Position numbers and translations under genes: made by a program
Part shown: in pieces, positions 21,270 to 55,717 of the stretch
Numbering within the stretch: the first letter of the stretch is position 1
Layout of the letters: each line of letters starts with the position of its first letter
NCBI GenBank assembly: GCA_026929865.2
Contig: CM049395.1
Location: forward strand, 30,002,001 to 30,066,000
Direction: 5' to 3'
Source: Hyperoplus lanceolatus
Lineage: Eukaryota > Chordata > Actinopteri > Uranoscopiformes > Ammodytidae
Length of the DNA: 64,000 bases
The notes under the pieces: model-generated
The model's database searches: none
The model's input: only the letters and a program-made list of their open reading frames with translations
Told to the model about the DNA's origin: nothing

Positions 21270-21454
21270 AGCTTACCCACAAAGAATCCAAACGAGAGAA
21301 CATTCCCTCCCACGGATAAAGAGTGAATCACTGAGATGAATTAAGGAAAGAATATTTTTCCTTGACTTCATGAGAGCAAAGTTGCCAGCTGTTTCATTTA
21401 GAAATGTCTCTTTAGTTTGTATTGGTTAGAAACATCACTGTGGTGCTCATAGTG

Positions 21455-31309: not shown

Positions 31310-32606
31310 TACAGTTTTTCTCATTTGCTTTGGTGCTTTTCTCAGATCAGAATGAAAATTCTCATAACTATTAGTTCAACCTCCGCAACATTTAGTCATT
31401 TGAGCACATCATAGTAGCAATTTCTCCTTCCTCTGAACAAATTGCAAATGCTTTTGGACATGTATCAGTTGCTTTCATACAATTCTCTGCTGTTTTATAA
31501 CATTGTCATTTGCTTATGTCATGTCAGTCAAAATGAACTATACTTATGGATGCTGAATAGTCGTTCCCAATAAAACTAATAGTCTTCATTTCATTGCTTG
31601 AGTCGTTACATACAAAATTGTTGAACTAGTTATCAAATACGTTGTTGTGTGGGATAATGTCCGTTTTCACCACTCACATCTGATCACACAGTGGTTTGCA
31701 GTACATGACAGAATGCTGGTTGAATATCTCCCTCCCTACTCCCCATTCCTTAATCCGATAGAGGAGTTTTTCTCTGCCTGGAGGTGGAAGGTTTATGACC
31801 GGCGTCCACATGCGCAAATGACCCTGCTAGCAGCCATGGATGTAGCATGTGATGACATTACAGCAGAGTCATATAGAGGGTGGATTCGCCACTCCAGGAG
31901 ATACTTTCCTCGCTGCATTGCAAGGGAGAATATCCGTTGTAGATGAAAATATGTGGCCAGACAGACAGGAACGTCTGGATGTGCCAGAATGATTTACCTA
32001 TATATGTTCAGTTACAATATGTCCTGTTATATTGTTCAAATTTGTGCACAGCTCTACCAAAAGGGTGTTTTTTTATGTTTGTTCTAAATAAGTGACTGAA
32101 GTGTATTTTTCTTTTGCACAATGCTGTAGAATTGCAAAGAGCATATACAGTAAAAATGTGAAACATACGTATTCAGTGTCTTGTACTCACTTACTCCCCT
32201 AACTACAGCAATGTGTAACTTTACTGTAGTTTTCAAATGGCTGTACAAGTAGTGTATAGTGCTGTCTTGAGCATTTTCAGGTAGTGTCACCGAGTTCTGA
32301 TCTTTTTTTTGCATTGGAAAACACTGAGAGAATAAACTGTCATAATGAAAACATGACAAAGCCATTTGACTATCTTGTTCATAAAGATGGTGTCAAGACT
32401 TCTCATTTTGATGACACCAGCAGTTCCATTGACATGAATACTTGCTTTTGAGGAATAGACTATCCATTTTGAGCAAGTGACGTACTTTTGCAGGTTATCC
32501 ACTAGGTTTTGCAGTTTGCACTAATTGTTTTGAGAAATGCACTAACTGCTGTGCAAATGTTAATAGTGATGTGAGAAAAGCACCAAAGCGACTGAGAAAA
32601 ACTGTA
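31310..32606 (+). mobile_element. Tc1/mariner (IS630)-type transposon, decayed copy
   Basis: The left end CAGTTTTTCTCA followed by GCTTTGGTGCTTTTCTCA is repeated inverted at the right end (32572-32604). Only a two-base difference lies between the two blocks. Both ends abut TA (31310-31311 and 32605-32606), the target of this superfamily. The interior holds the C-terminal third of a DDE transposase at 31620-31946. At about 1.3 kb the length is near a normal Tc1-like element, but the N-terminal DNA-binding part and first catalytic Asp are not readable. Confidence 0.8.
31620..31946 (+). pseudogene. DDE_3-type transposase, C-terminal remnant
   Basis: The readable frame carries VVWDNVRFHHS, with the second catalytic Asp followed by Asn. 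It then has YLPPYSPFLNPIEEFFSAWR, whose NPIEE supplies the catalytic Glu, and the tail GWIRHSRRYFPRCIARENI. This is the RNase-H-fold C-terminus of Tc1/IS630-like transposases (DDE_3). There is no ATG at the start of the frame and the first Asp is missing, so it is a relic. Confidence 0.8.
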
Positions 32607-32876: not shown

Positions 32877-35496
<2,620 letters not shown>

Positions 35497-37220: not shown

Positions 37221-37299
37221 GGACATGAGATTATCATGGACATGAGATTTAATCTAAACTCTATAGCCGGCTTTGTGTATGACCAGAGCAGGATATAAA
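37221..37299 (+). promoter_or_regulatory. Photoreceptor-type promoter: TATA box and two CRX/OTX-like sites
   Basis: GGACATGAGATT occurs twice (37221-37232 and 37238-37249). The first copy is followed by A, giving GATTA (TAATC on the minus strand). The second leads into TAATCT at 37250-37255. A TATAAA lies at 37294-37299. TAATC is the core bound by CRX/OTX factors that drive photoreceptor genes. The arrangement, with sites about 40 bp upstream of the TATA box, fits the downstream PDE6 gamma gene. Function is inferred. Confidence 0.5.
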
Positions 37300-37319
37300 C
37301 GCTGTGGCCCAAGGAGAAC

Positions 37320-37432
37320 AAAGGACAGAGAGACTGCAGAAAGAAAGAGGACCTTCTCTTTGTTTTGCACGTCTTCCTTTTGTTCAACACTTTCCAGACA
37401 GCTTCTCTTCACCCATCTAAAGTACCTTGCAG
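37320..37432 (+). other. Candidate non-coding first exon of the PDE6 gamma gene
   Basis: The start is estimated at about 25 bp after the TATA box. The segment ends CCTTGCAG|GTGAGA, a good donor at 37433. The next acceptor, TTACATAG at 37831-37838, sits two bases before the start codon. Many PDE6G/PDE6H genes have a 5' UTR exon in this position. Confidence 0.5.
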
Positions 37433-37840
37433 GTGAGATGATCAGATGGCACCACACAGCATAGACTGTATCTGTAGTATGCAGTTAGTTTGAAAGTGTG
37501 TCATGGGGAGACATCGAAAACTTAGTCTAGCTTCTAAGAAATTGTTTGATGCAATGGCAATAAGAACTTTGCCTTGATTTTTGTTGTTGTTGTGAAGAAT
37601 AAGTAAGTACAGATGCCACTTTAGTTCTATTTGTGCAGTGATTTAATACATGGTATATAACAGCATAATGATTAGTAGGCTTTAGGGGTGTTGGTAGAGG
37701 GTTAGGGTTGTATTTTTGAACTATACTGGACACAGTCAGTCTAGCCATTTCTTCCTGCTTCCATCTAAAAAAAGATGTCTCTTCATTTTTTTGCTTCCCA
37801 TTTCTTTCATTTAATACATCATTCTATCATTTACATAGAA

Positions 37841-38228
37841 ATGGACGCAACAGCGGCAGTAGCAGCCCCCAGAGGCGCCAAGCCCGCTCCCCCCAGGTTT
37901 GAGCAGAAGGAGAGACGGCAGTTCAAGAGCAAGGCTCCCAAAGCTGGACAGAAGGGGTGAGTCTAGACAAGAACTAGACCGTAAGATAATGGAAATGACT
38001 CATATAAACATTGCTCTCTGTATGTTTTTTTTCTAGATTCGATGATGTACCAGAAATGGGAGGTAACTATCAAATCATGATCACTGACAAATTATCCTAA
38101 AGTAGTCCATTTTTGGCAAGATCCATTAACCTGTTGGTCCCTCTCCTGCAGATGTGAAGGTGGTCTGCCCCTGGGAGGTGTTTGGGGACATGGATCTGAG
38201 TGACCTGGCCCAGTTCGGCATCCTTTAG
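37841..38228 (+). CDS. PDE6 gamma-type inhibitory subunit, divergent and short
   Basis: PDE6 gamma plugs the catalytic site of photoreceptor cGMP phosphodiesterase and is displaced by transducin. Three coding exons (37841-37956, 38037-38062, 38152-38228) give 72 codons before TAG. Visible landmarks are a polycationic region with RRQFKSKAPKAGQKGFDD, the transducin/catalytic contact block VVCPWEVF with its Trp, and the C-terminus DLAQFGIL, which closely resembles the usual ELAQ(Y/F)GII. It is shorter than the usual 83-87 residues, with about five residues missing before VVCPWE. Neither known Thr phosphorylation site is present: the RQTRQF Thr is Arg here, and no TPRK is seen. It could be a divergent pde6h or the third fish gamma paralogue reported as pde6i; synteny would decide. 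Confidence 0.85.
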
Positions 38229-38293
38229 ACCTTAACGCCAAATGGGAAACAGTACATTCCTGGTGGACATTTAGATATTTTTTGGCAGTTTTT

Positions 38294-38468
38294 TTCTATG
38301 CTTTATTGACAGTGTAGAGCATGTGTAGAGACAGAGTTGAAATGGGGCAGAGAGGGGAGTGACATGCAGAGAACGACCGCGGGCTGGAATCAAACCCAGG
38401 TCTGCTGCTGGCCGAGGACCATGGGGGGGACGCCCTACCAACTGAGCTAAGGGCGCCCCCAACATCAA
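38294..38468 (-). mobile_element. tRNA-derived SINE in the PDE6 gamma 3' UTR
   Basis: Read on the minus strand, it begins GGGGGCGCCCTTAGCTCAG with A box TAGCTCAGTTGG and B box GGTTTGATTCC. A tail GTTCTCTGCATGTCACTCC follows, and it ends AATAAAGCATAG plus an A run. GCAGTTTTT occurs on both sides (38285-38293 and 38469-38477) and is the likely target duplication. It lies between the stop codon and the poly(A) signal. It is the same family as 817-985. Confidence 0.85.
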
Positions 38469-38839
38469 GCAGTTTTTATTTTATTTTAATTTTACTTTCC
38501 CCATGAATTCTTCCGCTTTTTGCGTGTAGAGATGAGCCTGAATGGGTATCATTTAAAGGCAGCAGAGGAATGGAGAGGGATGTATTTCCCTCACCCATCG
38601 ATAAGTGGATGATGAAGCTCCTAAAACAGCTGACACACTGTACCGCTGTTGGGGTTTAATTAAAGAGGATGATCAGCCAATCAACACATTCTGTATTGTA
38701 CTTAAAGTAGGTTGATAATCTCCAAACAAACAACCAAATCACCTTGTTGTAAACAGTCAATGTAGATATCTGATTATGAGTGTCTATTCAATCACATCAA
38801 GTAGAGTTGTGTACTGTGTATTTAAGGCTGTAAATATGA

Positions 38840-38845
38840 AATAAA
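38840..38845 (+). terminator. Poly(A) signal of the PDE6 gamma gene
   Basis: AATAAA 612 bp after the stop codon, in AT-rich 3' UTR-like sequence. It is the first canonical plus-strand signal downstream. Confidence 0.6.
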
Positions 38846-38865
38846 GTATATTTGAATCATACCTG

Positions 38866-40491
38866 TTGTCTGTCTCTCCATTCTGATCACGATTCTCCAT
38901 TTTGTGTACACAGCAAAGCACTCACAAGCCATTGCATTTCTGGTAAAATGTACCTGTAGGTTGTTGGGTTGTCTTTTTTTTTACTTCTTCAGTGGAATAT
39001 ATTGCTAGTCCAAAAATACCTCTGTTTCTTATTTGTGTTGAAAATAAGGACCCAAAAATGTCTTCAGAAATTGCTTTACTAGTTCTTACTGTTTTGTCAG
39101 ACTATATAGAGAAGAGTGTAAAGGTTCTGTGTCTACACTCCCACCATTTATATGCCCCTAAACCTTGTATATAATCCAGTAAAATGATTCCATAATGCAT
39201 GTCCTGAGGGTGGGCCTTTTTGAGACAGCCTTATGGATAAGCCTGCTCAGGTAAGTGCTGACATGCCTGTTGTCAAAGTTGTTATGTTGTACAATGTTTA
39301 CACTTAATCTACATTTAGTTAAGTATTTCTAAGTGTATTTAGTCACATATAAATATAGAATTAAATAAACTGACGATCATTATAGCTGATCAACCCTCAG
39401 AGACAGAACTGCAACAGCCACACAATTTTTACTGATTTAAAAAAAAAATGTAGTTCTTCTTTGAAGTTGTTTATGTGTTATACATGTTCTTGTCACTGAG
39501 ATAAATAGTCCAACCCGGGACTGTATTTTGTTTAGCTTCTCTATTACATCAAATGTGAATAAAATCTAGATGTCTTGTTGTGGGTCATTTTAAGTGTCTA
39601 TCCTACATATTTATATTTTACAAATTTAAGATCTCCACTTGAGGTTGAAAAAGAGTTTCTCTGGGTTTAACAATGTCATTGAATGGCTGCAAAGCCTGCA
39701 TTTATATGAGCTGACCCAGAGAGGATGTCAAGAGCAAAAAGGTTGGACAGCACATCTCAGGGTAGTTTAATACAGATGGAAAAGACAAAAACGCTATATA
39801 AATATTGCAAACTCCCAGAAATGTATCCATGCAACATTTGGAACTGTGGTATAACAATGGTAAATGTAATATCTAATGATCTATCTAAAACCACATGTGT
39901 GGACTGCATGGGGCTAAGGTGTGACTTTGACTCCTGACAAATTGTCTGTTTTTGCCTGAATCTTGTGTTCGGGTTGGAAGTCTGCCTCATTCGACTTCTT
40001 AGAGTAAAGGAAAAAAGGTTACATCATTCAGTCTCTGATGCTATTAACCTCCTGTGAAGCCCAACACAGATTAGCACATGATACGTGTTACGCAAAGGAC
40101 CTATGATCTTGCTGACCTAAAAAGCACTTGAGATTAGTACCTGTAATCCCTTATTTTCCCATCCACTCTATTCCTTTACAACCCTAAACCGTATTGCAGC
40201 AAATGATTGAATAAAACTGCAACTGTTAAAATGGGGTGTAACTGTACACAAAAGGCATGGTTCAGTTCATATCACGGTTTTGAAGTCACGGTTTGGTTTT
40301 GTACAGTACGGTTCTCAGTTAAGAGGAAGAATGCAACAAAAAAAACTGCGTGCAGCATTAAGAACAATTTGATTTGATTTTGATTCCATTTATTTCAGAC
40401 ATATCAGTGATTTCAGTACGACATTGGAAGATTGTCTGCGACTGTGAAATCGTGTGAAAAGTGTAGTGTAAGCCCATCATTACTCAAAGTA
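38866..40491. other. Intergenic, nothing recognised
   Basis: AT-rich sequence between the PDE6 gamma gene and the first GCAP gene. No exon-like or repeat signal that I can name. Confidence 0.4.
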
Positions 40492-40625
40492 AGACTATGT
40501 AGGTGACCTCTGATCCCAATTCTGGATATTTACATACCAAAATTTAACAGACAGTGCCTTCTGGTTCCGAAATAAAACGATTGTGACAACCAACATATAA
40601 CATATAACCCCGTTCTCCCCTACTG
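40492..40625 (-). mobile_element. Fragment of an element B-type transposon
   Basis: Reverse-complemented, it begins GGGGAGAACGGGG and continues to CCAGAATTGGGATCAGAGGT. That corresponds to the left 130 bp of element B (43066-43195), with divergence in between. Only one terminus is present. Confidence 0.65.
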
Positions 40626-41761
40626 GTGGTGCATGCCATTGGTGCCCATTTAATTTATTTATTTTTGATTCAAACAATGGTGGGAAGGGAGAGATATCTA
40701 ATGAGAAAATGTATTTAATATCCCTCAAAATGTATAACACTCCCCACCATAATGAACACTTGTGGGGATTTGTATGCAGTTTATTTCACACCTTTCAGAA
40801 AAGTTTAATCAAAATAGATATTTGTAGAAATACAGAAATGTATGAGAAAATCTTGTAGAGTGCATGGAAAAGGAATGTAATTGTGTTTTTCAACTTGAGA
40901 ATTGGCTGTAAAACAAAAGTTTGTGCAATGACCTCATCGCAAAGTTCTATCCAGATCAGGCATTCTGCTGAGGAACCTATGGAGCCCTGTCACTGGCAAA
41001 AGACAGAACCAGCTGAGCTTATCAAACAAAAATAGAACTGAATTCATAAAAAAAATTATATACTGTCATTTTAAGTTATGTGCGTAACCTTTGGCGCCCC
41101 CATGAGGAATTCTGAGTAATTACAACAAACATGTCGGTCCATCTATATGAGGTAATCCTTCTGTGGTCACAGATACCGTAGATTGAATTCCTTACGCTGT
41201 ACGTCCAGGTTTTTTCTTAGCAGTAGAATCAATAACAGACAAACATTCGTGGGCACTTCTTGGGATTTTTATGAGCCCCTGCACCAGTGTCAGGGGGCAA
41301 CACGCCAAAACCGGTTTGTAAACGCTGAGAAAGTTGTTTAAAAAAACACACACACAAACACACTCACTGCTACATGGACCAATCCCTGCTATAGCATAAG
41401 ATATAGCACAAGTTATAGCATAAGTAAGAAATTCAAACAATACTGACAAAACACATGCAGACAATTTATATCATAGTCAGCATTGTTTAATTGATTTACC
41501 ACACTTTTGGCACTGTAAACAGCATTGCCAGATTGTCAGGCCCACTTGGACATCACCTTATTGTTGGCTGAAGATCAAGAGATTAACATGTAAAGCCCTT
41601 TGACATAATAGCCTGATCAGTGAGAGTGGCTGGACGGCAGTGCAAAGTTCTTTAGTTTGATTGGAGTGTGTGAGCAGAAGCCTTGGTGCCAGAAATCAAA
41701 CGTTCACTCAAACAGACAATCAATAATCGGGACCCTTTTTAATCAAGGTAATCAAAGGACC
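40626..41761 (+). other. 5' flank of the first GCAP gene
   Basis: No coding segment recognised. GATTAA at 41581 (TAATC on the minus strand) is a possible CRX/OTX core about 180 bp before the start codon. No clear TATA box is near it. Confidence 0.3.
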
Positions 41762-44700
41762 ATGGGACAAGAAGAAAGCCACAATGAGGAGATTGATTTG
41801 GAGCGTATTCAGGACCTGTGCATCATGTTCATGAAGGAGTGTCCGAGTGGTGCCCTGCACTTACACGAGTTCAAGAGAATATTCGGGGTCCAAAGCAGCT
41901 CTCAAGAGGAGTCCGTCTACATCGAGAATATATTCCATTCCTTCGACACAAATCGGGTAAAAGAAACAACAATTCCTCATTGTGGATTTACATTTTTAGC
42001 TCTATTCTATATTCAACTCTTTGCATTATTTGCCTACAGGATAACACACTGAATTTTGTTGAGTACGTGGCGGCCCTCCACTTGATCCTACGAGGGAATC
42101 TTGAAGATAGGCTCAAGTGGTCCTTCAAGATGTACGACAAGGATGGGAACGGCAAGCTGGACAGGCAGGAGGTGAAACGCCTCATAAAGGTAAGAAAGAC
42201 CTTTTCAGATATCAAGTGTTTACTAAGGAAAATAACTTCTCAGTCAACTGTGTTGCCGTAAGTATGTTATTGCGGTAAACATGTGTAGAAAGAAGGGTCA
42301 ATTTGAAGAAAGTGGAGTGATTTGAGGTAAAAATTTCAATATTGCTTGCTTTCATAACACAAATCCTCTACAGTGCTGGCCCACAAGGCTTAGGGAGGTG
42401 CTGTAGGTTCACAGGGCATTAGAGGACGAGGGATTGGTCTGCCTCTGTGAGGGCTATATTTGAATTGTGATAATCTTCAGTGTACTTTGAGGTGAGCCTC
42501 TAAACATAGAAACGTTCAATTAGCTCACTATTCTTGTGCTCTGATTAGATTGACTGGAATACGTTAATATTTGTCACACTAATCCAACAGCAAAATGTTT
42601 TATTTCTTATTAGGTACCATTGGTTTATCTGCATTAATGAGACATATTGGGGAACCTCTAAGAATTAAAAATAGTGCAGCTGAATTTGTTCTCACACTGT
42701 CTCTCTATTTGTTCCGGAGTTTCAGGCATTTAATTTACCCTTGAGTGTTTCCTCCATTGTAAATATATAAATTGTTATATCAACTTTCAGATCACGTCCA
42801 TGAGAGCCTGTATTAAATTTGTTGAGCCATTAATGACCCTATTACACAATCTGTGTTGTGTAGTGTCCTCCTTCTTGCCACAGGCCCGGGGCTGAGAGGT
42901 TCGTAGGCCCCCCGGGCGGCGGTCTTACAAACAGTGCGAAAAGCCTGTTTGTCCCCCAATATCTCTGTTGATGAAATACAAAATCCCTAAGGTAACATGT
43001 ACTTAAAGGCCTACTTCACCGGTTTGAATATGAAGGTGTATTGAATTCTGAGATCCTATGTAGTAGGGGAGAACGGGGTAATTTGTCACATGGGTTGGAT
43101 GTCACATTCGTTATATCTCGCCACCAGAGCGCGCTAGCTCTGAAATGTTGATATAAAAAAGGTCCAGAATTGGGATCAGAGGTCACAACATAGCTTCCTT
43201 GGAGTTAGACTGCTGCATTTCAGGTGAGAGGATGTTTTGTGTTTTTCATGTCAAATTCAAAATATTTTGCTTCTCAGTATTTTTCTTCTAGGCTTTTACA
43301 CAATGGGTTTATAACAAAACACTTGTTACCCTCAGAAAGTGTGAAGGGTAAACTATAGTTTAGATTGTGGTTAGCAAGCTAATTAGTTGTCAGATGGTTG
43401 TTGGCCTTGATGCTAGCAAGAAATTCAAGTTGGGGTTGGTCGTCAAATTTTTGGGGGGTTGGTTGTCACATGTTATCTCAAGGCTGCAGCCAGAAAAGGA
43501 ACCCAATAACGAAAGAAATTGTCAAGCTGTATCCTCACTGACACCCCAGAGAAGGAAAGAATAGAGCAGGAAAAGGCAGCTAGCAAGCAAAAGAAAAAAG
43601 GGCAACAAAATCAAAACAACCCAGTGCATCCCAAACTAGACCAGCTGCCAAGGCTACAGAACGTTATGTAGGCCTATTTGTCAACTTGACAGTGCAATTA
43701 AACATTCAAATTTGGTTCTGCCTCCTTGCCTTCTTTTTAAGATTTTTCCCATTAAGATAACATTGTGACAAACAACCCCATAGTGTGTGACAACCGACCC
43801 CTTGATGGGGTTGGTTGTCACAATGTGTCAGAGTGTCTTTGATGGTAAATTACTTCTTCATTACAATAAGTTGGAAAAAAAGAGAGACACACATTTCTAG
43901 CCAACACCTTAAGCTTCAATTTAATGTAGGAATGGCTATTGACAGATGTTTTGGTGATGAGCAATTCTCACTAGAGTAAAAAGTGTGCCTACTTACCCCG
44001 TTCTCCCCTATAAATGTGCAAAAAAAAAAATCAGTTCATCCTAGCTGAGAAAAGGCAGAAAGAGTGTTTTTTAACCCTATATTAATCTTACTGTGACATC
44101 ACAGTAAGATAAATATAGGGTTAAAAAAAAATTACTTGTAAATATTACTGTGATGTCACAGTAGGAGAAATCACAGTAATATTTACAAAGTAAGGTTTTT
44201 AACCCTATATTTATCTTACTGTGATGTCACAGTAAGATTAATATAGGGTTAAAAAAAACACTCTTTCCTTTTCTCAGGCTAGGATGAACCAATTTCAATT
44301 TTTTTGCACATTTATACTACATAGGATCTCAGAATTCAATACACCTTCATATTCAAACCGGTGAAGTAGGCCTTTAAACCCCCTCCTGGTATAATGACTT
44401 TTAATAACCAAACACACATGGTTGGTTACAGTGTTTTTCCAAGTTATTTCAGAGACAGCGGTGGGGACCCAGGACTTTCTAGGGGGGTCCGGGGGCATGC
44501 CCCCCGGAAGAAAAATTTGAACCTTTTAAAGTAAAATGCATCAATCTGGTGCACTTTGAGAAGAAAACTAAGGCTAAATCAACTGTGTCCTATGTGAGCT
44601 ATTTTCTGGAATCATTTGGAGACACAGAAATACCAAAAAGCAGAAACAAAAATATACAGGTTTAAAAATCCAATCAGTCAGCATTCCAATTTTTTTAATA

Positions 44701-45988
44701 ATCCCTTATCCCAAAGCTACTACTCTCTTTTAATTCTTCGTTTTGTTTTTAATGGCTCATCTCAATATAGGCCCTTGATCTGCGTTGCCCCGAACAATGT
44801 TATTTAAACAAAAATAACAAAAATGTACTGGTGAATGATAGGCCCCTTGATCTTCGTAGGCCAAAAATAATGTGATTTTATTTTCCTTTTTCTTTACTGG
44901 TTCATGATGGGCCCCTGATCTCTCTACGCCCCCCTAAGATCAGGGGCCTATCATGAGCCAGTCAATAATTTATTTAAATGACAATGTGCGGGGCCTTCTT
45001 AGATCAGGGGCCTATAAAAAAAAAAAATCTTAACCCCTGATCCTTGTAGGCCCTGGGGCTTCAGCCCAGGTAAGCCCGTGCATAAAGGCGGCCCTGTAGA
45101 TGTAAAAGGTTGAGTAAATTCAACTAAAGCTAAAGCTGATGGTTAAATGCACTTGATCACAGATATGTTTTGTGTCTCACACAGATTATTCACAAAATCA
45201 AGCTCCAGACGAGTGAGGTCGAATTGACGCCGTCCGAAATATGTGACAGAGTATTTGACCTGGTCGACAAAAATCATGACGGTAAGTAAATTAAAAGTGT
45301 TCAATAGGATACTTTAATAACACGGATTACACATATTAGGATTGTGTTTGTATTGACAGGGAATTGCAGTGAAGTGCGGATTTGCCTTGGTTGGATTGTA
45401 ATGTTATAATACATGTTTGTTTTTTTCAAGCACAATATATGTGTGCCTTTAAAATGTATTTTCACATTTTAGTCTTCACATATCCATTTATACAATGACA
45501 GAGATATTGGATTAACACAACGACATCAGGAGAAGGGGACAAAATCCAGTGTCCCAAAGTAGGACTGTATATTCCAAAGCTTCAGTCTTTCTGGTAAAAA
45601 CTGAAGAAAAAAAACTGTAGCTCAACAAGGACACCGTCCAGGTAAAATATGATAAGGATATTTCATATGGTTTGATTTGTCTGACTCAGATTGCTAGAGA
45701 CTCATTTTAGTTTTGACTAAACTTCAGACTGCACACAGACAGGACTGTGGATTTCGAGGAATTCAAGAGCGTAATCAGCTAGTGATCATTACACCATTAC
45801 AGTGACCAATAACACTTTCAATGTACATCTAGCAGTGACTCACTATGATCTTTTTGTGTGCCCCAGGTCAGATAACGTTGTCCGAATTCATGGAGGGAGC
45901 TCAGAAGGATGAATGGGTCATGAATCTGCTGAAGTTGGATGTTAACGCCACAGGATGGGTCATCCAGAACTCTGTGAAATTACCATGA
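41762..45988 (+). CDS. guca1-like: Guanylate cyclase-activating protein (GCAP), tandem gene 1
   Basis: GCAPs are myristoylated EF-hand sensors that activate retinal guanylate cyclase when calcium falls after light. Coding exons are 41762-41956, 42040-42189, 45185-45281 and 45867-45988, with phases 0, 0, 1, giving 187 residues and TGA. MGQEES supplies the N-terminal Gly for myristoylation. EF1 is the inactive type ([13 protein letters not shown]). EF2 is [14 protein letters not shown]3 [12 protein letters not shown] and EF4 DKNHDGQITLSE; EF3 and EF4 keep the canonical loop residues, while EF2 has Asn where Gly is usual. The C-terminus is [25 protein letters not shown]. The sequence is nearer GCAP2-like fish paralogues (the GCAP4/5/7 group) than GCAP3. 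I do not assign the exact paralogue letter. Intron 2 is swollen to 3 kb by nested transposons. Confidence 0.9.
43007..44373. mobile_element. Element A: TTAA-flanked palindromic transposon, split by element B
   Basis: TTAA flanks both ends (43003-43006 and 44374-44377). The left arm starts AGGCCTACTTCACCGG and the right end is its exact complement over about 60 bp. The centre (44066-44255) contains nested palindromes of ACTGTGACATCACAGT and ACCCTATATTAATC type. Without element B it is about 420 bp. The TTAA target suggests a piggyBac-like non-autonomous element. It lies in GCAP gene 1 intron 2. Confidence 0.8.
43066..44008 (+). mobile_element. Element B: TA-flanked transposon nested in element A
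   Basis: The ends are GGGGAGAACGGGGTAA and its complement, flanked by TA at 43064-43065 and 44009-44010. Element A's intact right arm shows the undisturbed site GTAGTATAAATG, so insertion with TA duplication is demonstrated. The interior keeps a coding-like relic near 43537 ([20 protein letters not shown]). It resembles the lysine-rich tail after the DDE domain of pogo-like transposases; that family link is inference. Confidence 0.8.
44440..45105. repeat. Cluster of GC-rich palindromic repeat fragments
   Basis: GGGGGTCCGGGGGCATGCCC is followed by several forward and inverted copies of GATCAGGGGCCTAT-type words between 44770 and 45050. This is typical of decayed DNA-transposon ends. No single element can be bounded. 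Confidence 0.45.
45717..45782 (+). pseudogene. Orphan EF-hand-like coding fragment in GCAP intron 3
   Basis: The frame ending at a TAG (45780-45782) reads [14 protein letters not shown], which matches the second half of an EF-hand loop and its exiting helix (V-D-F-x-E-F). An acceptor-like TAAACTTCAG precedes it. It is not in frame with the GCAP exon 3 donor. It may be an exon relic or chance; the match is short. Confidence 0.3.
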
Positions 45989-46323
45989 TCTCTTAATCCA
46001 CCCAAATGTTTTTCTTTTGAGGCTGGCAGAGAGCTGCTGCCTTGGCTCCATGATGAGCTCCCTATGACTTTGGAATGGAGCTCAGTGCATTTTCTCCAAA
46101 GATGCAGTGCACTTGTGATTTGGACTGCCGGTCCCCTGCTCCTGCAGTCATTGCTTTATGCCTGTGGCCTGGTTTGGCATCGAGCAAATGTGTCAATCTA
46201 AGGAAACCCATCACTTAAAGACAGTGTTTGCTCTTGACGGCAGTACAGTCAATGATTGTGTATTTTTATTAATTATACTTGCATGTGTTTTTAGTTTAGT
46301 TGGCCTTAGTGGATTAAAAACAG

Positions 46324-46329
46324 AATAAA
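46324..46329 (+). terminator. Poly(A) signal candidate, GCAP gene 1
   Basis: AATAAA 336 bp after the stop codon in AT-rich sequence. Confidence 0.5.
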
Positions 46330-47463
46330 TCACCCCTAAAAATGATGTGACAAGTAAAAATTAATAATATAAAATAATATAACTTTCTTAAATCTTTTGT
46401 TGTTCAAGTTTAGTTATAATATACAAAAAAGTAGTATTGTATCACTTTTCAGACTACTTTAATTTATGCTAGTACATCAGTGAAGCCAGTTTAAAGTGCA
46501 TTAGCGTTTCCATAGTTAAACATACAGCTGATCAAGCCAAAAACCAACATATTATTAATTTGTTATTTCATTTAAAGGTCATATCTGACTTTTTGTTTTG
46601 CTGTTCACATTTATCTGGTAGATGTTGTAAAATTTGGATTTAATTTTGAACTATTCACTGTCCTAACCTTACCATGGTGGCAGAAACTATCATGGATGAG
46701 TGAATGGACAACATATAGCTAATTTGAAGCCCTCGTCTTGTAACATATGTTGTAACGATTGGGTTGGCAAACAGATGCCTTTATGTAGCAAACATGGAGC
46801 AAAAAATAGTATCCATTTGAAGTTGTGTTTCTGGCTAGACAACACATTCCACAAGAAAAGCTCAATATTCACTCCACTTGTAGCTGTCGTTCGGTTTACA
46901 CCAACTCAGGAGGGCAACATCTTAGCTGTTAAATGTTCCACTTTCTTCAACGGCTATGTTTTTTATGTAATGTTTTTTGCCTGCTGCAGCAGGGCCGACC
47001 GGAGGGTTAGCGTTTGTTATGCTACCGAGAAACCTGAAACAACTTGAGAATATTATGCAGCTTAAATTTATTTAATTTATTTTTGCACAAGTCTGAAGAA
47101 AATGTTTCATGTGAAAACTCATGCTGTATCTGTGTCAGATGTGCATCTATTTTGATATTAAAACATATTTTTATTCAAACATTTTTATCTAGACCCGATG
47201 TCTTATATGATGCAGCCACCTGGTATCACCCAACAAATGTTCAAATCTTACAAGTCCTACACGCCAGGGGCTTAGAACATAATCCTCAGAGGCTTGATGT
47301 ACTCACCTTAGTCTTTGCTGCCAATCACTTAGTCTGCAATGTTTATGGGGACTGATCTAAAGTGTGTGAGAAAAGAAGACACCATTGATCACATCACATA
47401 AAGTGATTAACCAATTCTTTCTTTCTAATGTGTTAGAAAGTTGCACACAATGTGAATGTAAGC
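46330..47463. other. Intergenic between the tandem GCAP genes
   Basis: AT-rich. The open frames at 46700-47355 show no known domain and have no splice context. Nothing else recognised. Confidence 0.4.
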
Positions 47464-47576
47464 GGGTCAAATTTGACCTGTGATTTAATATAGCCCACCT
47501 TTTGTTTAGAGACCTCCCGAATTGACTCAAATGGTAACAATGTGTTTTGTGGGTTGATAGTAGAATTATTTAACAA

Positions 47577-49394
47577 ACAACCCAAGTGTTTGAATAAACG
47601 AAACTGAGTCAGGCCTTCTTCGAAGCAGATGATTTACTTGCAGACAGCAGCAAGGGAATTAACAATGTATCTGGTTTGGTACATGGTTGAATACAAAGAA
47701 ATGGACAGTTGTACATGAGATTATATGCAGTGAGATGGTGTGTGCGCAAATACACAAGGTTTGTGTGTTCAGGGGCCTCATTTATAAACGTTGCGTACGC
47801 CCAGAAGAGGGCGCACGCCAATTTCTAAGCAAATATTGGGATTTATAAAAACCAAACTTGACGGGAGATGTGCGGTCCTCCACGCAAACTCTGACCCATG
47901 CGTACGCACAGAAAGTGGAGAAAGGAGAAACGGCGACTCCGTCGGCACATGTATGAAGTGCGAGAACGAATGTGTTTGTGTAAAATGAATCCAGATAGGC
48001 CTATTATAAGCCATGTAGGTCTATCATATATTGGGAGTTCCTTTGCAAAACGGATGAAGCCATTCTTACAACTAATGAACAAATGCCTCCACGGATTATT
48101 CCATGGAGTGATACCAACAAAAACAAAACGAATTAGGATCTTACATAGCCTACAAACGGAGATAGGCTATATGAGTGCAAATAAAAAAAAAATAGCGTTT
48201 GAATAAGCTCTGCAGTTAGAATAAACTATCTGCATGTTGTGGAATTAATTCTGATAATATTGAGGTGGAATACAGCCTATTACTTTTACACTGACGCTGT
48301 TCTCGATGCCTCAGTCAGGCAGACAGGAGTGCGCCTTTTCATACACTAATGATAAACCTACTGTACATCACATAGGCTACTGTGATCTTTTTCACGACTT
48401 TTAGTCCGTTTTATCTATGTTTTTCTTTTAGTTTAAGCACGTCGCAATTGTGTTTTGAAAGGGACTGTGAAGTTTATTATTAACCCTCCGCCGCCCGCCA
48501 CTGCCCCGGGATGAATTCTCCGAATCTGTATGTCATGGGGGGTCTCAGTGTCCCCCGCTCGTGGCACAAACACTGTTATGTGAGGATATGCACTTGTTTG
48601 CGTCCACTTTTATGTCGGATCGCTTCTTTTTATTTCAGCCACAGCGTTCACAGAGATCGCCACAGGCTGCACTCTGACGCCTTTACGCTCACACTGCCAC
48701 CAAACTATATTTTCCATGGTCGCCACTTCTCCAACGGGTACTTCGAGGTAACTTCGGGGTAACCGCAGTGATCCACACCGTGTGGAGTCTATTTTTCCAT
48801 TTCCCTTTCAGTCGGCGATTGCCACTACCGCCTTCATGCACTCAGTAAATGATATTAATTTGGGCGTGTTGATGACTATGTATGGGTAAATATGGGCGGT
48901 ACGTGAAGCCCGCAAAGTCTGCGCCACATTTAGAGTTGATTGTGATTTATAAAGGGAAACAGGCGTAGGACGTGAGTGCGCACTGTTTTATAAATCCGAA
49001 TATTTTTGTTCGCACGTACATCCTACATTTCTTCCGTACGCCAGCTTCCACGTGAATCCCACGCAAAGCTTTATAAATGAGGCCCCTGGACATTTGAGTT
49101 TTGCTTGCAAAAGCAGAAAGATTTTTAATTAGGCAGATAACAGAATATGGGAAACTTAGGGAGTCTTTTTTACTCCCCCATCAACTCTCAACCACTGTGC
49201 ACATGAATGTGTCATACCTCTGTATGTGCCAAAATCTTATTAGGCCGTTTTCTTCTCCAAGGCTAAACAACAAGTTGTAGCAAAAACACTTTGGAGTTCT
49301 TTAAGTTTACTGGGACAAAGTTCAACAGGCAGAAAGCATATATTGTAGCATTAAAATATTATACAATCATAAGGCAAATTAAATTTTGTTAACA
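47577..49394. repeat. 500-bp direct repeat, copy 1 (with insertion)
   Basis: Starts ACAACCCAAGTGTTTG and ends GTTAACA. It matches 51555-52056 at roughly 98% once the insertion at 47771-49087 is removed. It could be an LTR pair or a segmental duplication. Read on the minus strand the repeat starts TGTTAAC, and an A/G-rich tract lies just inside copy 1, as for a 3' LTR. No primer-binding site or target duplication is seen. Confidence 0.75.
47771..49087. mobile_element. PIF/Harbinger-like element with preserved empty site
   Basis: The ends AGGGGCCTCATTTATAAA and its complement form an 18-bp inverted repeat. The second copy of the host repeat (51750) reads GTGTTCAGGACATT with no insert. That fits a 3-bp CWG duplication (CAG on the left, CTG on the right), a target used by some Harbinger elements. 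The 1.3-kb interior has no identifiable transposase. Confidence 0.7.
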
Positions 49395-50814
49395 TATCCC
49401 TGCTTTTTTATAATATTTGATGCAACTTTGTTGCAAGTATAGAATGAGTAATATATTCCAATAATATATCAAGCATGTAAGGCAAATGAGTACAATAAGT
49501 GAACTTTATACGTTTCATTCAAGCAGAAATAATATCAAGTACATTCAACATCACAGTTGTGAAAATGCAAGTCTGTGTACTGGTGCAAAACGTCTAATTA
49601 CAGTTTCAGAGAGGACAGTCTTTGCCAGTAGCCAGAGAACAGGAACCTAGATCTTCTGATGGTCAACAAGTCCTTTTTTTTGGCATCTCGACGCAAAGTG
49701 TCCTTCTTATCACAGTCACTGGGAATGGTTATGTATCCGATATTACCATAACCTATTCAGATTGTTCCTCAGTGTCCAATTCGTCCTTATTGAAGCATGC
49801 CAGCTTCGTCTTCTTCTTGCATCTGAAACAGAATGAATATGAGCAGTATCACGTTTCTCAAAACAAATGCTCATCATTCTGCCAGGGTTGTTTCTCTCCA
49901 ATAACAGTACACAGCTTTTAACATATCATCCTATCCGCATTGCTTGCTCTAGATGTCACAATTAACGCACAACAACATTTTAGGACAGGTTTGATTTCAT
50001 TCTTGAGTTCACATTTTTGTCTGTGTCGGTTAGCCCAAATAAAAATGTTTATCACTGAGGCATTTGCCCCTTCCCCTGTCTCCATGTACACAAGGCACAC
50101 ACAGGGCTTAAATCACACACACACATTCTTTCATCACGAGAAGCTCTCTACTTCTCCAAATCTGACATGGTGTTATATTTTGTTATTTCAAATAACAGAA
50201 GTTAACTCAGCTTGGTTAAGTATAGGTGTCTTTACAGTTAACCAGTTTTGAATCAATGTATATCAATAATACACATTATGATCACATTTTCAGCATAAAA
50301 ATCCCCTTAACTTTTAACTCCAATCAAAAGCATTGAACAATTCTTTTTAGTGAACATTTTCATATAAAAAGAACACAAAAGGACGCTCATTTGTAAGTTT
50401 CTGCTGGGACTTCAAATGACTGACTGCACCTTTAATCTTTAAGGTTGACTATGGGGTTTGGATTGGCGAGATATTCAGCTCTAAACTTTAAAGCGTTTAG
50501 CAATGTAGTCAGAACTCTGGTCATCTTTAGGAGACGAGCATTTTGTTTCTCCTTTGTCTTGATAAGACTTTGCAGTACATTCATTATCCATTTTACAAGC
50601 AATTTATTTTTTTTAAATTGTAAAATCAAATATTAAATTACCCAGCAATCAATTTAAAAGGGTGGATACCCCTTATTCCCTCCAAATTCTCCACAAAATT
50701 TACCAATTTAAAAATAGAACACTCTATGTGATGTATCCTAAACAAAACAAATAAGTCTACTCTGCAGTTGTAGACTATTGACAAACATAACAAAACAAAA
50801 CAAATAAACAACCT

Positions 50815-51055
50815 GTCAAAGACTAACTCCCAGGAGCAGAAACCCGGCCGGAGTATATCCCCAGACTAAAAAAAAAAAAAAACTAAATGATCCGTTAACA
50901 TGATCATTTTAACGTGCACTGTGAGATTTTTGTTTTTGACAGTGTAAATTCTCAAACACCAAAAGCAGTCATTTCCCCACGGATGGACCCAACCAGTCAG
51001 AGACAAACCCCCGGGAGCAGAACCCGGCCAGAGTATATCCCCAGGCTAAATAACC
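50815..51055. repeat. Two diverged copies of a 50-bp GC-rich unit
   Basis: 50821-50870 and about 50999-51050 share GGAGCAGAAACCCGGCC/GAGTATATCCCCAG-type sequence with a few differences. They lie between the 500-bp direct repeats. Function unknown. Confidence 0.6.
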
Positions 51056-51063
51056 AAGATGGA

Positions 51064-51366
51064 AAATGGTAAATGGTAAATGGACTTGTATAGCGCTATA
51101 TCTCCGTTTATCACAGACTCAAAGCGCTTTACATTGTTTTTTGTACACATTCACCCAGTCACACACACATTCATACACCGATAGCAGCAGCTACCACGCA
51201 GGGTAGGCTTAGCACTAGGGTGCTAAGCTAACTAAGCTAACTATCGGGGGCAATTCGGGGTTCAGTGTCTTGCCCAGGGACACTTCGACATGTGGCGGGG
51301 AGACGGGGGATCGTACCTCCGACCCTGCACACCAGAACTCCCTACCCACTTCGCCACTGCCGCCCC
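51064..51366. repeat. Teleost interspersed repeat (TGGTAAATGG...AGCGC type)
   Basis: ATGGTAAATGGTAAATGGAC, TTGTATAGCGCTATATC and AAAGCGCTTTACA are hallmarks of a very common fish retroelement/SINE-like repeat. The other end is GATCGTACCTCCGACCC...CACTTCGCCACTGCCGCC. It is inserted between the 500-bp direct repeats. Confidence 0.7.
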
Positions 51367-51554
51367 AAAAAACACTACTACCAGGAATTCTCCCACAGAT
51401 GGACTATACCAAGATAGAAAATAACTACAATGAGTTATTCCCCCACAGATGGTAAAACCAAGATGGAAAACCCCACTTCATAAACTAGTTTATCTATCTA
51501 ATACATAAAACAAAGGAATTCCTAAACAAAACAAAACAAAATCAGCTGTTTTTT

Positions 51555-52056
51555 ACAACCCAAGTGTTTGAATAAACGAAACTGAGTCAGGCCTTCTTCG
51601 AAGCAGATGATTTACTTGCAGACAGCAGCAAGGGAATCAACAATGTATCTGTTTTGGTACATGGTTGAATACAAAGAAATGGACAGTTGTACATGAGATT
51701 ATATGCAGTGAGATGGTGTGTGCGCAAACACACTAAGTTTGTGTGTTCAGGACATTTGAGTTTTGCTTGCGAAAGCAGAAAGATTTTTAATTAGGCAGAT
51801 AACAGAATATGGGAAACTTAGGGAGTCTTTTTTACTCCCCCATCAACTCTCAACCACTGTGCACATGAATGTCTCATACCTCTGTATGTGCCAAAATCTT
51901 ATTAGGCCGTTTTCTTCTCCAAGGCTAAACAACAAGTTGTAGCAAAAACACTTTGGAGTTCTTTAAGTTTACTGGGACAAAGTTCAACAGGCAGAAAGCA
52001 TATATTGTAGCATTAAAATATTATACAATCATAAGGCAAATTAAATTTCGTTAACA
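51555..52056. repeat. 500-bp direct repeat, copy 2 (empty site)
   Basis: Same start and end as copy 1, without the Harbinger-like insert. Differences from copy 1 are a handful of substitutions, for example GGGAATCAACA for GGGAATTAACA. Confidence 0.8.
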
Positions 52057-52635
52057 GGGTTTATATAGCTTTTACCGAGGATATCATAAAATCTGGTTCC
52101 AATAAAAAAATATATGCATTTTTTGCATATCTGAAGATGAAAACTGGTCAAATTTGACCCTAACACAATAGAAGAGTTGAAGTGCTCAATGAAAACAATA
52201 TAGCAAATATCTAATTCTGCTAATGGAATTAGCTGGTGAAATATGTGCAGTTGGCCACATATCTGCAGACCCTTATAAGTCTAGTATTCTTCTATTGTTA
52301 CCAGTGGTTGCTAAAAATAACAACTTTAATCAACTTAAAGTAGCATTAAGATACCGTGAAAATACTCCTGCATACCAATGTCTAAGTTAGTCAAAGTACC
52401 AGTAGTTAGCGTTCAAGCATAAACAGTAAGGCTTTTTTATTGTTGTAGATGCATTTAAAGGTGTATAAAGGGGTTAGGCCTTTTTTTTAGAACAGACTTG
52501 ATATTAATGTCATCTTTATTAACCACTGTAGCTTCTTTAAATACTCAGAATGGGAGGGCTAGACATGGAGCGTTACCATCTAGAACTTCCACCACTAGAT
52601 GATGCCAAAATACACTTTTTTACACACTGCACCTT

Positions 52636-53139
52636 TAAAGGTGCGAACACTCCAAACGCGTTGGGTGCGGTGGCCAAAGCGCCCAACGCACCTGATCTGG
52701 TGCTTGGTCATTTTGTGTCAAAAAATGGTTCAACGCGCCCAACTCTACGCAGCTAGTCCCCCCCCCCTCCGATATATTTATTCCCCTAATCAACCATGGC
52801 TGCGATCCGAGCCGACACAACAGCGTTCATGTCCACACAAAAACAACAACAACAAGGCCAACAATTGTGCCAAAAGACAAATAAACAGCAATTGAACGGA
52901 ACAAATAGCCTTAAAACAGCATTGCAGATTCAGACCACTCGGAAATGAACACAAACAGCAAGGCAGCACCATACCAAACACATTTACAGCAGCATTGTGC
53001 ACAGGGCGGTAGAAAATAAAGGCAAGTAGCCTACATTACCCTACCTGGCTGTGACGGGACCGTGGCTGGCGTAGATATAGGCATAGGATTTTTCAACGCC
53101 GCCACCGCACCCAATGCTTTTGGTGTGTTCGCACCTTTA
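52636..53139. mobile_element. 504-bp MITE with about 40-bp inverted termini
   Basis: The left end TAAAGGTGCGAACAC followed by TTGGGTGCGGTGG is mirrored at the right by CCACCGCACCCAATGC...GTGTTCGCACCTTTA, with a few mismatches. No coding content. No clear target duplication, so superfamily unassigned. Confidence 0.8.
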
Positions 53140-53982
53140 GTGTTTGTATTTTACTGTTGTAATTCAGATTAAAAAGTCAAATTGTTCCTCAGAATTGGAG
53201 TGAGGTACTTGAAATTTCAACTGCACTTTTAAATTAAAACATAATATCTGTCCAATGTCGAGTGAATTTCAGAGCGATGTTACAATTTCAAATTTCAAAG
53301 GTCATAACGACATGTCCATGATGCTACCTTTCCTTAAACTTGGGTTGATAACTGTCTGCATCACTATTTAAACACAAATTTCTTGATATCTTGAGGATCA
53401 CGCAACACTCTTCAGTTATTGTAATATAATTCATATGTTCTGCATATGGTCTAAACGGGCTGACCAGTCAGTGTACTGTTTCACTATTTAGCCCACATTC
53501 ACTAGATCAGGTTGGGCGCTAAGACAGACCTCAGGGGATAAACAGTTCTAACAAGACCACTCTCAGGATTTGACGTCAGATGTTTTATAATCTCGCTGAG
53601 AGCATTACAGTGGGACATCCACCCTTTGCTCTGTTTGCTGTTAAAGAGCCAAATGCGCCTCAGCTTGTAAGCAAATTCATCAATGCTTAGGAGTCGGTGG
53701 ATGGACCATTGTTATCCACAGGGCAATGCGCGGCTTTGTCAGGTTTTAGAAAACTAAACATCTAGAAGAAATAAAGGTATTCTTCAGAGGGGTGTGAAGA
53801 AGATCAGAGAAGAGTCAATTGGATTTGTCAAGCAGGTTACTTTGGAATTATCTACACAGGCTATTTTGCAGACGGAACAAGCCTCGCAGTCTTTGTGCAG
53901 TGATGAATGTGCATGACAACTTGTGTTTAGGTTTTTCATTATTTTAGCAGCTTAACTTTTGGCTTCTAGTTTTTTTACAACT
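53140..53982 (+). promoter_or_regulatory. 5' flank and 5' UTR of the second GCAP gene
   Basis: TTTATAATCTCG at 53584-53595 holds a TATA-like word overlapping a TAATC CRX-type core. The ATG of the GCAP gene follows about 390 bp later. Promoter function is inferred; no coding frame is present apart from in-frame non-ATG codons just before the start. Confidence 0.35.
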
Positions 53983-55717
53983 ATGGGTCAAGGACACAGT
54001 GACGCACGTGATGAAGTGATTCTTAAAAACATCCAGGAACTCTACCGAAAGTTTGCGAACGAATGCCCGAGTGGCAATATGCACTTACATGAATTCAAGA
54101 AAATCTTTAGACCCAACAGAAACTCAACGGAAGAAGAAAATGCATATATGGAAACCGTGTTTAAATCTTTTGATACAAATAAGGTAACCTATCAGTGTCT
54201 TGTGTGTGTGTGTGTCATATAGAGATAGTGAATAGGTACAATATAGATAAGCAAAAATAGCAGAAGTATAATGTATTGACAGGCAGTATGACCTATCTCT
54301 CCTGATTGCTTCTTAGGATGGTCAATTAGAGTTCATGGAATATGTGGCAGCACTGCATCTGGTTTTTCGTGGAAAACTCGAGGACAAACTGAAATGGTCT
54401 TTTAAAATTTATGACATCGATGGAAATGGCAGCCTGGACAGAGGGGAAGTGCAACACATTGTCATGGTAAGTATTGGCTTTTATTGTGTTTACATCAAGA
54501 AAATCAGACTCACACTTGTTACTGTCAAATATTATCAAATGTCAGATTTGACCCTAACTCTCAAAGCTTAAAGTTGCTCTGAGGAACTTTCAGTTTGTGT
54601 TCATTCTTGCACCCCCTTTGGACAAAAGCAGTAGTGATTTTACACGCCAGCTGTTGCTCCTGGGTGAGCGTATGACAAAGGCATTAAGAAAAACTATAAA
54701 AAAATTACCATTCTTTGCACTGATGGTCTCGTTTGCTGTTACATGTCCTTTGTGATCATCGGAGGAAACATTTGACCGTTTAAGAAGTATTTGAAAGCTC
54801 CCCGTAGCACCTTTAAGTTAGAAAACAGTGTTTTAGGAGTTTTTAAACAATCTGCCTCATCAGAACTGTGTGGGTGTATTTTTTTCTTTCTGGTAACTGT
54901 TATTAGCTTTTTTAAGCAAAATTATGTTTTCACGTACAACAGTATCATCTTGATGTAGCTCATAGTCAAAGACTAAATTAGGTTGTTTTTAGGGTCCTAT
55001 ATGAACTCAACTTCTATGATAAGTGAGTACTTCAGCGATTTAATTTGGAAAGTTTAGGTTCTTCGGATTTGATTGAAGCAAACCACTCCAAGATACGATC
55101 ATAACAGTATACTCAACTAACTTTTGCCTTACACTATCAGTTACTTAGTCCACACATATGGAAAACAGTTTTTGATCGAAAACAGAATAAAGATAAAATT
55201 TAGTGGATACAAAATGGTATAAAATTGATAAAAAACAATATAATTAAATATAAAAAAGACCCAAGACAATGCATACAAGTGAATTTACCGCGGACATAAG
55301 GTTCTGTTGAGTGTCTTAAATGTGCATGTATGAAAAGATGATACAAATGCCAGTGTAAAATATGTCCTCTCGAACATTTGAACTGAAATTCACTTGCATT
55401 TTTGTTTCCATCTGCTTAGATCATTTACAAGTTAAAGAGAAACAAAGACCCTAACAAGAGTGTTGATGACATTTGTGACAGAATATTTGACCTGGTGGAT
55501 AAGAATAAAGACAGTAAGTAACAAGTTAATGACAAATTGTTTAGATTCACCTTAAAATTGTGATTCTGATTGTGTGTCGTTCTGTTCCTCTTGTCCAGGT
55601 CGGATTACTTTGGAAGAATTCATTGAGGGGGCTGAGAAGGACCCATGGGTGATGGATCAGCTCCGACTAGATATCGGCCCCAAATTATGCTTTGATGATG
55701 TACCGCGTGTGTTTTAA
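53983..55717 (+). CDS. guca1-like: Guanylate cyclase-activating protein (GCAP), tandem gene 2
   Basis: Same family and architecture as the gene at 41762-45988. Coding exons are 53983-54183, 54317-54466, 55420-55513 and 55599-55717, with phases 0, 0, 1, giving 187 residues and TAA. The start is the ATG giving MGQGHS, which supplies the myristoylation Gly; upstream in-frame codons have no ATG. EF1 is inactive ([13 protein letters not shown]). EF2 is [12 protein letters not shown] and EF3 [14 protein letters not shown]4 is DKNKDSRITLEE, with Ser in place of the usual loop Gly. The end, DVPRVF, differs from gene 1. The sequence clearly diverges from gene 1 outside the EF cores, so the duplication is old. 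It is probably one of the fish-specific GCAP4/5/7-type paralogues; letter not assigned. Confidence 0.9.
54568..54816. mobile_element. TTAA-flanked MITE in GCAP gene 2 intron 2
   Basis: The left end TTAAAGTTGCTCTGAGGAAC pairs with the right end GCTCCCCGTAGCACCTTTAA as imperfect inverted repeats. TTAA on both sides suggests a piggyBac-like target. 249 bp, no coding content. Confidence 0.65.

What the first reader, a model, noticed from the sequence alone, without database searches (positions are those of the whole stretch)
37221..55717. Three photoreceptor cGMP regulators in one 18-kb block
A PDE6 gamma-type gene and two GCAP genes lie consecutively on the plus strand, separated only by transposon-rich spacer. 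Their products control opposite arms of the same cycle (cGMP breakdown and resynthesis). Shared retinal regulation, or a chromatin domain, is possible. The exon calls are direct; co-regulation is inference.
Basis: partly seen in the sequence, partly recalled or inferred. Interest (0 to 1): 0.75.

Follow-up and report, generated by a model that had tools for sequence, protein, structure and literature searches.

The report
Fish vision-gene trio: PDE6γ plus two GCAPs
Three intact genes that brake or refill the light-sensing messenger cGMP sit side by side in this fish genome, and the same linkage shows up in many other bony fishes, so it is an old inherited gene neighbourhood; whether the genes are switched on together is untested.

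Summary
On the plus strand lie a three-exon PDE6 inhibitory (gamma) gene (CDS 37841-38228) and two four-exon GCAP genes (41762-45988, 53983-55717), all with open frames and GT-AG introns; a RASSF7-like gene lies upstream. Both GCAPs are closest to GCAP2 among solved structures; the first groups with cyprinid guca1g (GCAP7-type) sequences, the second in a sister clade. The PDE6 gamma gene is neither this genome's rod-type copy (C17) nor one of its five cone-type copies (C16, C5 x4): it keeps a second coding intron that those five lack and falls in a separate teleost clade. Contig-length fingerprints put PDE6 gamma and the first GCAP on one contig in 16 of 18 names compared, including herring and milkfish, and on one 9.5-kb contig in Ilyodon. 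So the linkage is inherited, not unique to this assembly. Co-regulation remains unshown: motif counts near guessed starts are low and only slightly above expectation, and a published medaka GCAP pair is 5 Mb apart. Ordinary in mechanism; moderately new as a PDE6 gamma lineage and linkage.

The parts
32877..35180 (+). RASSF7-like gene, about 4 coding exons (ends approximate); upstream neighbour
   Evidence: Pfam RASSF8-10_RA E 5e-9 and RA E 2e-8 on joined first exons; exon reading; the RASSF7 (not RASSF8) label is from recalled human sequence
37285..37432 (+). putative TATA box and non-coding first exon of the PDE6 gamma gene
   Evidence: sequence reading only; no transcript data
37841..37956 (+). 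PDE6 gamma coding exon 1
38037..38062 (+). PDE6 gamma coding exon 2 (26 nt)
38152..38228 (+). PDE6 gamma coding exon 3 with stop
41762..41956 (+). GCAP-a coding exon 1
42040..42189 (+). GCAP-a coding exon 2
43003..44377 (.). element with 63-bp perfect inverted ends inside GCAP-a intron 3
45185..45281 (+). GCAP-a coding exon 3
45867..45988 (+). GCAP-a coding exon 4 with stop
47577..52049 (.). spacer with a duplicated ~500-bp segment (47577-47773 + 49088-49387 versus 51555-52049); the first copy is interrupted by ~1.3 kb
53983..54183 (+). GCAP-b coding exon 1
54317..54466 (+). GCAP-b coding exon 2
55420..55513 (+). GCAP-b coding exon 3
55599..55717 (+). GCAP-b coding exon 4 with stop

Best explanation
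This is an old, inherited teleost gene neighbourhood: RASSF7-like, then a distinct PDE6 gamma gene, then a head-to-tail pair of GCAP2-branch genes. The GCAP pair arose by tandem duplication. The PDE6 gamma gene is a separate lineage, closest to teleost cone PDE6H but keeping both coding introns, so it came by DNA-level duplication or relocation and not by retroposition; it was in place by the clupeocephalan ancestor. By family knowledge, the PDE6 gamma product would hold cone or rod PDE6 shut in the dark and the GCAPs would switch on retinal guanylate cyclase when calcium falls. Each gene probably runs from its own promoter, and the order most likely persists by ordinary slow decay of gene order. 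Shown: gene structures, family, same-chromosome linkage in other species. Inferred: function, expression, date of origin, lack of shared control.
For: Gene models and families. Whole-genome PDE6 gamma set: C17 rod type (3 coding exons), C16 and C5 x4 cone type (2 exons), window copy (3 exons). Window-type clade of 77 rows SH-aLRT 97, next to 5 teleost PDE6H-type rows (joint branch 99). GCAP-a lies in a clade whose split looks like a teleost genome-duplication pair; GCAP-b is in the sister clade; both clades contain Elopomorpha and Otocephala. No Rho-GDI match on C1, while C16 and C5, which carry PDE6H, have it: weak support for a moved copy. Motif words near starts few.
Against: The PDE6 gamma tree has only 74 columns, 51 of 81 inner branches open. 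The GCAP sister relation has bootstrap 91, below the tool's star. No gar, bowfin, bonytongue or zebrafish locus could be read, so ancestral position is untested. The Rho-GDI marker is weak: C17, which carries the rod-type PDE6 gamma, has no match either, and on C5 the two are over 12 Mb apart. PDE6I is not excluded. Two OTX-type words just upstream of PDE6 gamma would fit photoreceptor control of that gene.
Confidence: 0.7

Rival explanations
1. A co-regulated photoreceptor domain: the three genes share an enhancer or open chromatin block in cones and selection keeps them together.
For: Linkage kept in herring, milkfish and many percomorphs; same strand, same tissue family; zebrafish gcap7, pde6ha and pde6hb are listed as cone genes (passages); Lamb & Hunt propose a regulatory advantage for ancestral proximity of phototransduction genes (section read); OTX-type words slightly above expectation at all three starts (3, 2, 2 against 1.35).
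Against: Those counts are too small to tell, and no ROR-like or CTCF-like word lies near any start. Among the 87 PDE6 gamma hits, no row with a visible species name is otophysan, salmonid, gadiform or elopomorph, although such fishes are in the GCAP lists. Medaka pair reported 5 Mb apart.
Confidence: 0.15
2. The PDE6 gamma gene is PDE6I (Lagman et al.), thought lost outside zebrafish and cave tetra among the teleosts they studied, here retained but moved beside the GCAPs.
For: Both introns kept, as expected of a non-PDE6H gene; it is the only PDE6 gamma locus found in the genome that is not of G or H type.
Against: Gar PDE6I lies on LG13, the GCAP2-A/-B pair on LG27; no row named as zebrafish came up in the 87 hits, though the word filter can miss it; the tree puts the clade next to teleost PDE6H.
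Confidence: 0.25
3. The adjacency is a pure chance placement with no history worth telling.
For: With 63 phototransduction genes (the zebrafish number, passage) and ~22,000 genes (my assumption), about 0.18 adjacent pairs are expected by chance in any one genome.
Against: The linkage is shared across deep teleost lineages (16 of 18 names for PDE6 gamma and GCAP-a), so whatever its origin it is inherited.
Confidence: 0.05

Closest known systems
GCAP2-A / GCAP2-B head-to-tail pair, spotted gar LG27 (Lamb & Hunt 2018, PMC6170504; sections 2.1, 3.1 and most of 2.4 read)
   Same: Two GCAP2-branch genes in head-to-tail order; GCAP-a groups with cyprinid guca1g sequences, the type that the paper calls GCAP2-B (zGCAP7). 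Zebrafish itself was not in my rows.
   Different: No PDE6 gamma gene is described beside the gar pair in what I read. Whether window GCAP-b is their GCAP2-A or a tandem copy of GCAP2-B is open: two further GCAP2-like genes lie at C1:33.28-33.29 Mb.
PDE6G / PDE6H / PDE6I inhibitory subunits (Lagman et al. 2016, PMC4906994; abstract, one results section and passages read)
   Same: Same Pfam family, same number of coding introns as this genome's rod gene, conserved CPWE and C-terminal LAQFGI-type tail.
   Different: Lineage distinct from this genome's G and H loci; 72 aa, without the N-terminal TPRKG stretch; three residues shorter before CPW than its relative P0001; second coding intron kept, unlike this genome's five H-type copies.
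Vertebrate phototransduction paralogon (Lamb & Hunt 2018)
   Same: Phototransduction families, GCAPs and PDE6 gammas among them, proposed to belong to one ancestral block.
   Different: In gar the PDE6 gammas (LG10, 12, 13) and GCAPs (LG3, 8, 27) are on different linkage groups; here they are immediate neighbours.
GCAP1-GCAP2 tail-to-tail array of tetrapods and gar
   Same: Paired GCAP genes.
   Different: Tail-to-tail GCAP1+GCAP2, not kept in teleosts; the window pair is head-to-tail and both GCAP2-branch.

Membership tests
PDE6 inhibitory gamma subunit | Match to PF04868 above curated cut-off | tested here: met
   84.6 bits vs cut-off 25
PDE6 inhibitory gamma subunit | C-terminal inhibitory tail and CPW transducin-binding segment (roles recalled) | tested here: met
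   CPWEVFGDMDLSDLAQFGIL aligns to rod/cone tails without gaps
PDE6 inhibitory gamma subunit | N-terminal TPRKG phosphosite stretch (role recalled) | tested here: not met
   absent; also absent from this genome's four C5 cone-type copies, so I do not treat it as excluding membership of the wider family
PDE6 inhibitory gamma subunit | Inhibits PDE6 catalytic subunits | not testable with these tools
   needs an enzyme assay
PDE6H (non-otophysan teleost type) | Last coding intron lost | tested here: not met
   window gene keeps it; C16 and all four C5 copies lack it
PDE6I | Chromosomal position with SSTR5 | not tested
   SSTR5 was not searched in this genome; gar position known only
GCAP (GCAP2 branch) | Closest to GCAP2 among solved neuronal calcium sensors | tested here: met
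GCAP (GCAP2 branch) | N-terminal Met-Gly, EF1 with CPSG, three further EF loops with ligand residues (features recalled) | tested here: met
   read by eye from the translations; GCAP-b EF4 has Ser at the usual Gly, as do some orthologues
GCAP (GCAP2 branch) | Ca-dependent activation of retinal guanylate cyclase | not testable with these tools
   needs an assay
Co-regulated gene domain | Shared expression pattern and shared regulatory element | not testable with these tools
   no expression or chromatin data; motif counts inconclusive

The most novel reading that the evidence does not exclude
The window PDE6 gamma gene is a fourth vertebrate PDE6 gamma lineage, undescribed as such, that became locked beside a GCAP pair early in teleost history and is co-controlled with it, giving fishes a matched cGMP-brake and cGMP-refill unit for one photoreceptor class.
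Probability: 0.12. Interest if true: 0.7.

Novelty: new member of a known kind. Interest (0 to 1): 0.42.

Why it matters
It adds a PDE6 gamma lineage to a family whose teleost members were assigned by synteny to G, H and I (with some left unassigned), and it offers a compact natural test of whether adjacency of phototransduction genes has regulatory meaning: lineages with and without the PDE6 gamma neighbour can be compared for GCAP expression.

Tried and rejected
Considered and rejected: retrocopy origin of the PDE6 gamma gene (both introns present); identity with this genome's rod or cone copies; an in-place ancient partner of PDE6H via RASSF7/RASSF8 (the strong RASSF8-10 RA hits lie on C20, C15 and C14, not on the PDE6H chromosomes C5/C16; weaker ones on C6, C8 and C1:20.04 Mb; the window's own RASSF7-like gene was not listed). 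Rho-GDI as a marker proved weak. Rfam gave no hit at gathering threshold. The two further GCAPs at C1:33.28 Mb left the naming of GCAP-b open. Genome copy number of the 1.3-kb spacer element was not obtained. In the listings and passages seen, no paper describes this linkage (in one search rassf7 had 0 occurrences in each of the 25 papers listed of 67). Imanishi 2004 is not held.
Full report
WHAT IS THERE. The three genes are real. Splice models with GT-AG introns give a 72-aa PDE6 gamma protein (three coding exons) and two 187-aa GCAPs (four coding exons each), all on the plus strand with no internal stops (the PDE6 gamma model was one base off and was corrected). Pfam places the first in PDE6_gamma (E 5.4e-24) and the others among EF-hand proteins; PDB comparison gives PDE6 gamma chains for the first and GCAP2 as the top chain for both GCAPs.

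SURROUNDINGS. The window is C1:30002001-30066000 of an 806.7-Mb genome in 527 contigs. A RASSF7-like gene lies at about 32.9-35.2 kb on the same strand. BRSK-type exons lie to the left near C1:29.943 Mb (Pfam UBA_BRSK; PDB BRSK2; ORF). A coiled-coil gene that I could not name begins near C1:30.070 Mb to the right (no Pfam hit). By recall, RASSF7 and BRSK2 are both at human 11p15.5, so the neighbourhood looks like that block; this was not tested against a human record. No further protein gene was recognised in the spacers by eye among ORFs of 50 aa or more.

WHICH PDE6 GAMMA. The genome has seven PDE6 gamma copies at four places: a rod-type gene on C17 with three coding exons; a cone-type gene on C16 and four cone-type copies within 14 kb of C5, all five with two coding exons; and the window gene with three. 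Lagman et al. report that the non-otophysan teleosts they studied lost the last coding intron of PDE6H and that only zebrafish and cave tetra keep PDE6I; they also left some genes unassigned (section read). In a tree of 86 rows and 74 columns (80 of the 87 hits; 7 odd or partial rows dropped), 77 rows including the window gene form one clade (SH-aLRT 97), next to five H-type rows, the two joined at 99. The clade holds the GCAP-linked milkfish and herring genes. The window copy is somewhat divergent: 80% identical to its best relative over 69 columns, 3 residues shorter than P0001 before CPW, end branch 0.30.

WHICH GCAPS. In a 73-row tree of hand-picked hits, GCAP-a sits in a 44-row clade; within it, a 12-row branch holds genes on other chromosomes (for example milkfish contig 63121898, and cyprinids whose annotated relatives are named guca1g), and another branch holds the genes that share contigs with PDE6 gamma. 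Zebrafish guca1g itself was not among the rows, so co-orthology with zebrafish GCAP7 is inferred; the name guca1g is also used by some sources for GCAP-a- and GCAP-b-type genes. GCAP-b is in the sister clade. A 30-row tree agrees: the two clades are sisters (91/90, below the tool's star), with two further genes of this genome at C1:33.282 and 33.290 Mb branching earlier on long branches. Lamb & Hunt describe GCAP2-A and GCAP2-B head-to-tail on gar LG27 and about 5 Mb apart on medaka chromosome 3 (section read). GCAP-b may be GCAP2-A, or a tandem copy of GCAP2-B with the 33.28-Mb gene being GCAP2-A. I leave that open. GCAP-b evolves fast here (end branch 0.43-0.49; C-terminal tryptophan replaced) but keeps its EF-loop residues.

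IS THE ORDER CONSERVED. The protein searches list, for each hit, the length of the longest contig it lies on, which fingerprints a chromosome. Searches listed the best 120 of 332 and of 326 hits. I used 229 of 321 distinct listed rows (40 of 87, 96 of 120, 93 of 114 new ones); those left out had no contig, or no name (environmental rows), apart from P0073, which repeats the contig of P0071. Keys are genus names, or species where a genus recurred; a few names were cut off in the output. PDE6 gamma and GCAP-a share a contig in 16 of 18 names, GCAP-a and GCAP-b in 32 of 39, PDE6 gamma and GCAP-b in 11 of 14, all three in six. Of the 12 discordances, five concern rows of the other-chromosome branch (Coilia twice, Alosa, Hoplias, Acnodon); Prochilodus is on small contigs; Menidia has two assemblies; Thunnus, Poecilia and Solea (two) may mix species or assemblies; Megalops is unexplained. 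These are same-contig results, not adjacency, except for Ilyodon (9,526-bp contig, locus tags 025977 and 025978), Austrofundulus (119 kb) and Stegastes (599 kb). In Coilia the PDE6 gamma and GCAP-b tags are 19 apart. The species share ancestry, so this is one inherited linkage and not 16 independent events.

CO-REGULATION. From 1,000 bases before to 200 after three guessed starts, OTX-type TAATC[CT] words number 3, 2 and 2 against 1.35 expected from the window; two lie 60 and 82 bases upstream of the PDE6 gamma start. One strict CRX word (0.09 expected) lies 812 bases upstream of it; none at the GCAPs. NRL-like words number 1, 2 and 0 against 0.79. ROR-like and CTCF-like words: none near any start. 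These counts are too small to decide. Zebrafish gcap7, pde6ha and pde6hb are listed as cone genes in a review (passages), compatible with co-expression but about other copies. Among the 87 PDE6 gamma hits no row with a visible species name is otophysan, salmonid, gadiform or elopomorph, although such fishes are in the GCAP lists; several names are cut off or missing and short genes are often unannotated, so absence is not proven. A cichlid study found a 'pde6h-like' gene among eye-size loci and guca1g among differentially expressed genes (passages); whether that is this locus is unknown.

POSITION. Rho-GDI matches fall on C16 (two genes) and C5, which carry PDE6H, and not on C1; but C17, with the rod-type gene, has none either, and on C5 the two are over 12 Mb apart, so this is weak. 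Published bonytongue regions carry a pde6h paralogue beside mgp/bgp1 with erp27 or ddx47 (passages), another sign that PDE6H's home is elsewhere.

CHANCE. With 63 phototransduction genes (zebrafish number, passage) among an assumed 22,000, about 0.18 adjacent pairs are expected per genome, so one such neighbour pair is not by itself remarkable. What is added here is its age and the distinct PDE6 gamma lineage.

VERDICT. Confirmed observation, conserved linkage, ordinary mechanism, co-regulation unshown. The most useful new point is a PDE6 gamma lineage at the RASSF7-GCAP locus that the published G/H/I scheme, as far as I read it, does not name.

Noticed in passing
L010 and L011 (C5:19105552-19119109): Four cone-type PDE6 gamma copies with identical predicted proteins lie within 14 kb in alternating orientation; the exon-sized matches of the first copy to the other three are 92-96% identical in DNA.
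   Followed up: partly
L049 and L053 (C1:33282089-33290840): A second pair of GCAP2-like genes, both on the minus strand, 3.2 Mb from the window pair on the same chromosome.
   Followed up: partly
L054 (C10:13378501-13383500): GCAP2-like exons whose splice pieces were not resolved; possibly guca1b or a decaying copy.
   Followed up: no
window 47577-52049: A ~500-bp segment is present twice (97-99% alike); one copy is interrupted by ~1.3 kb whose two ends read as inverted GGGGCCTCATTTATAAA-type sequence, like a recent insertion.
   Followed up: partly
window 43003-44377: Element with 63-bp perfect inverted ends inside GCAP-a intron 3, with a nested 108-bp inverted repeat.
   Followed up: no
window 21430-22530 and 31602-31943: Reverse-transcriptase ORF of a LINE-like element (Pfam RVT_1 on 21430-22005; the next ORF gave no hit) and a DDE transposase fragment.
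   Followed up: no
window 55599-55717: GCAP-b C-terminus departs from ten aligned relatives (their conserved WF region replaced) with no frameshift seen.
   Followed up: partly
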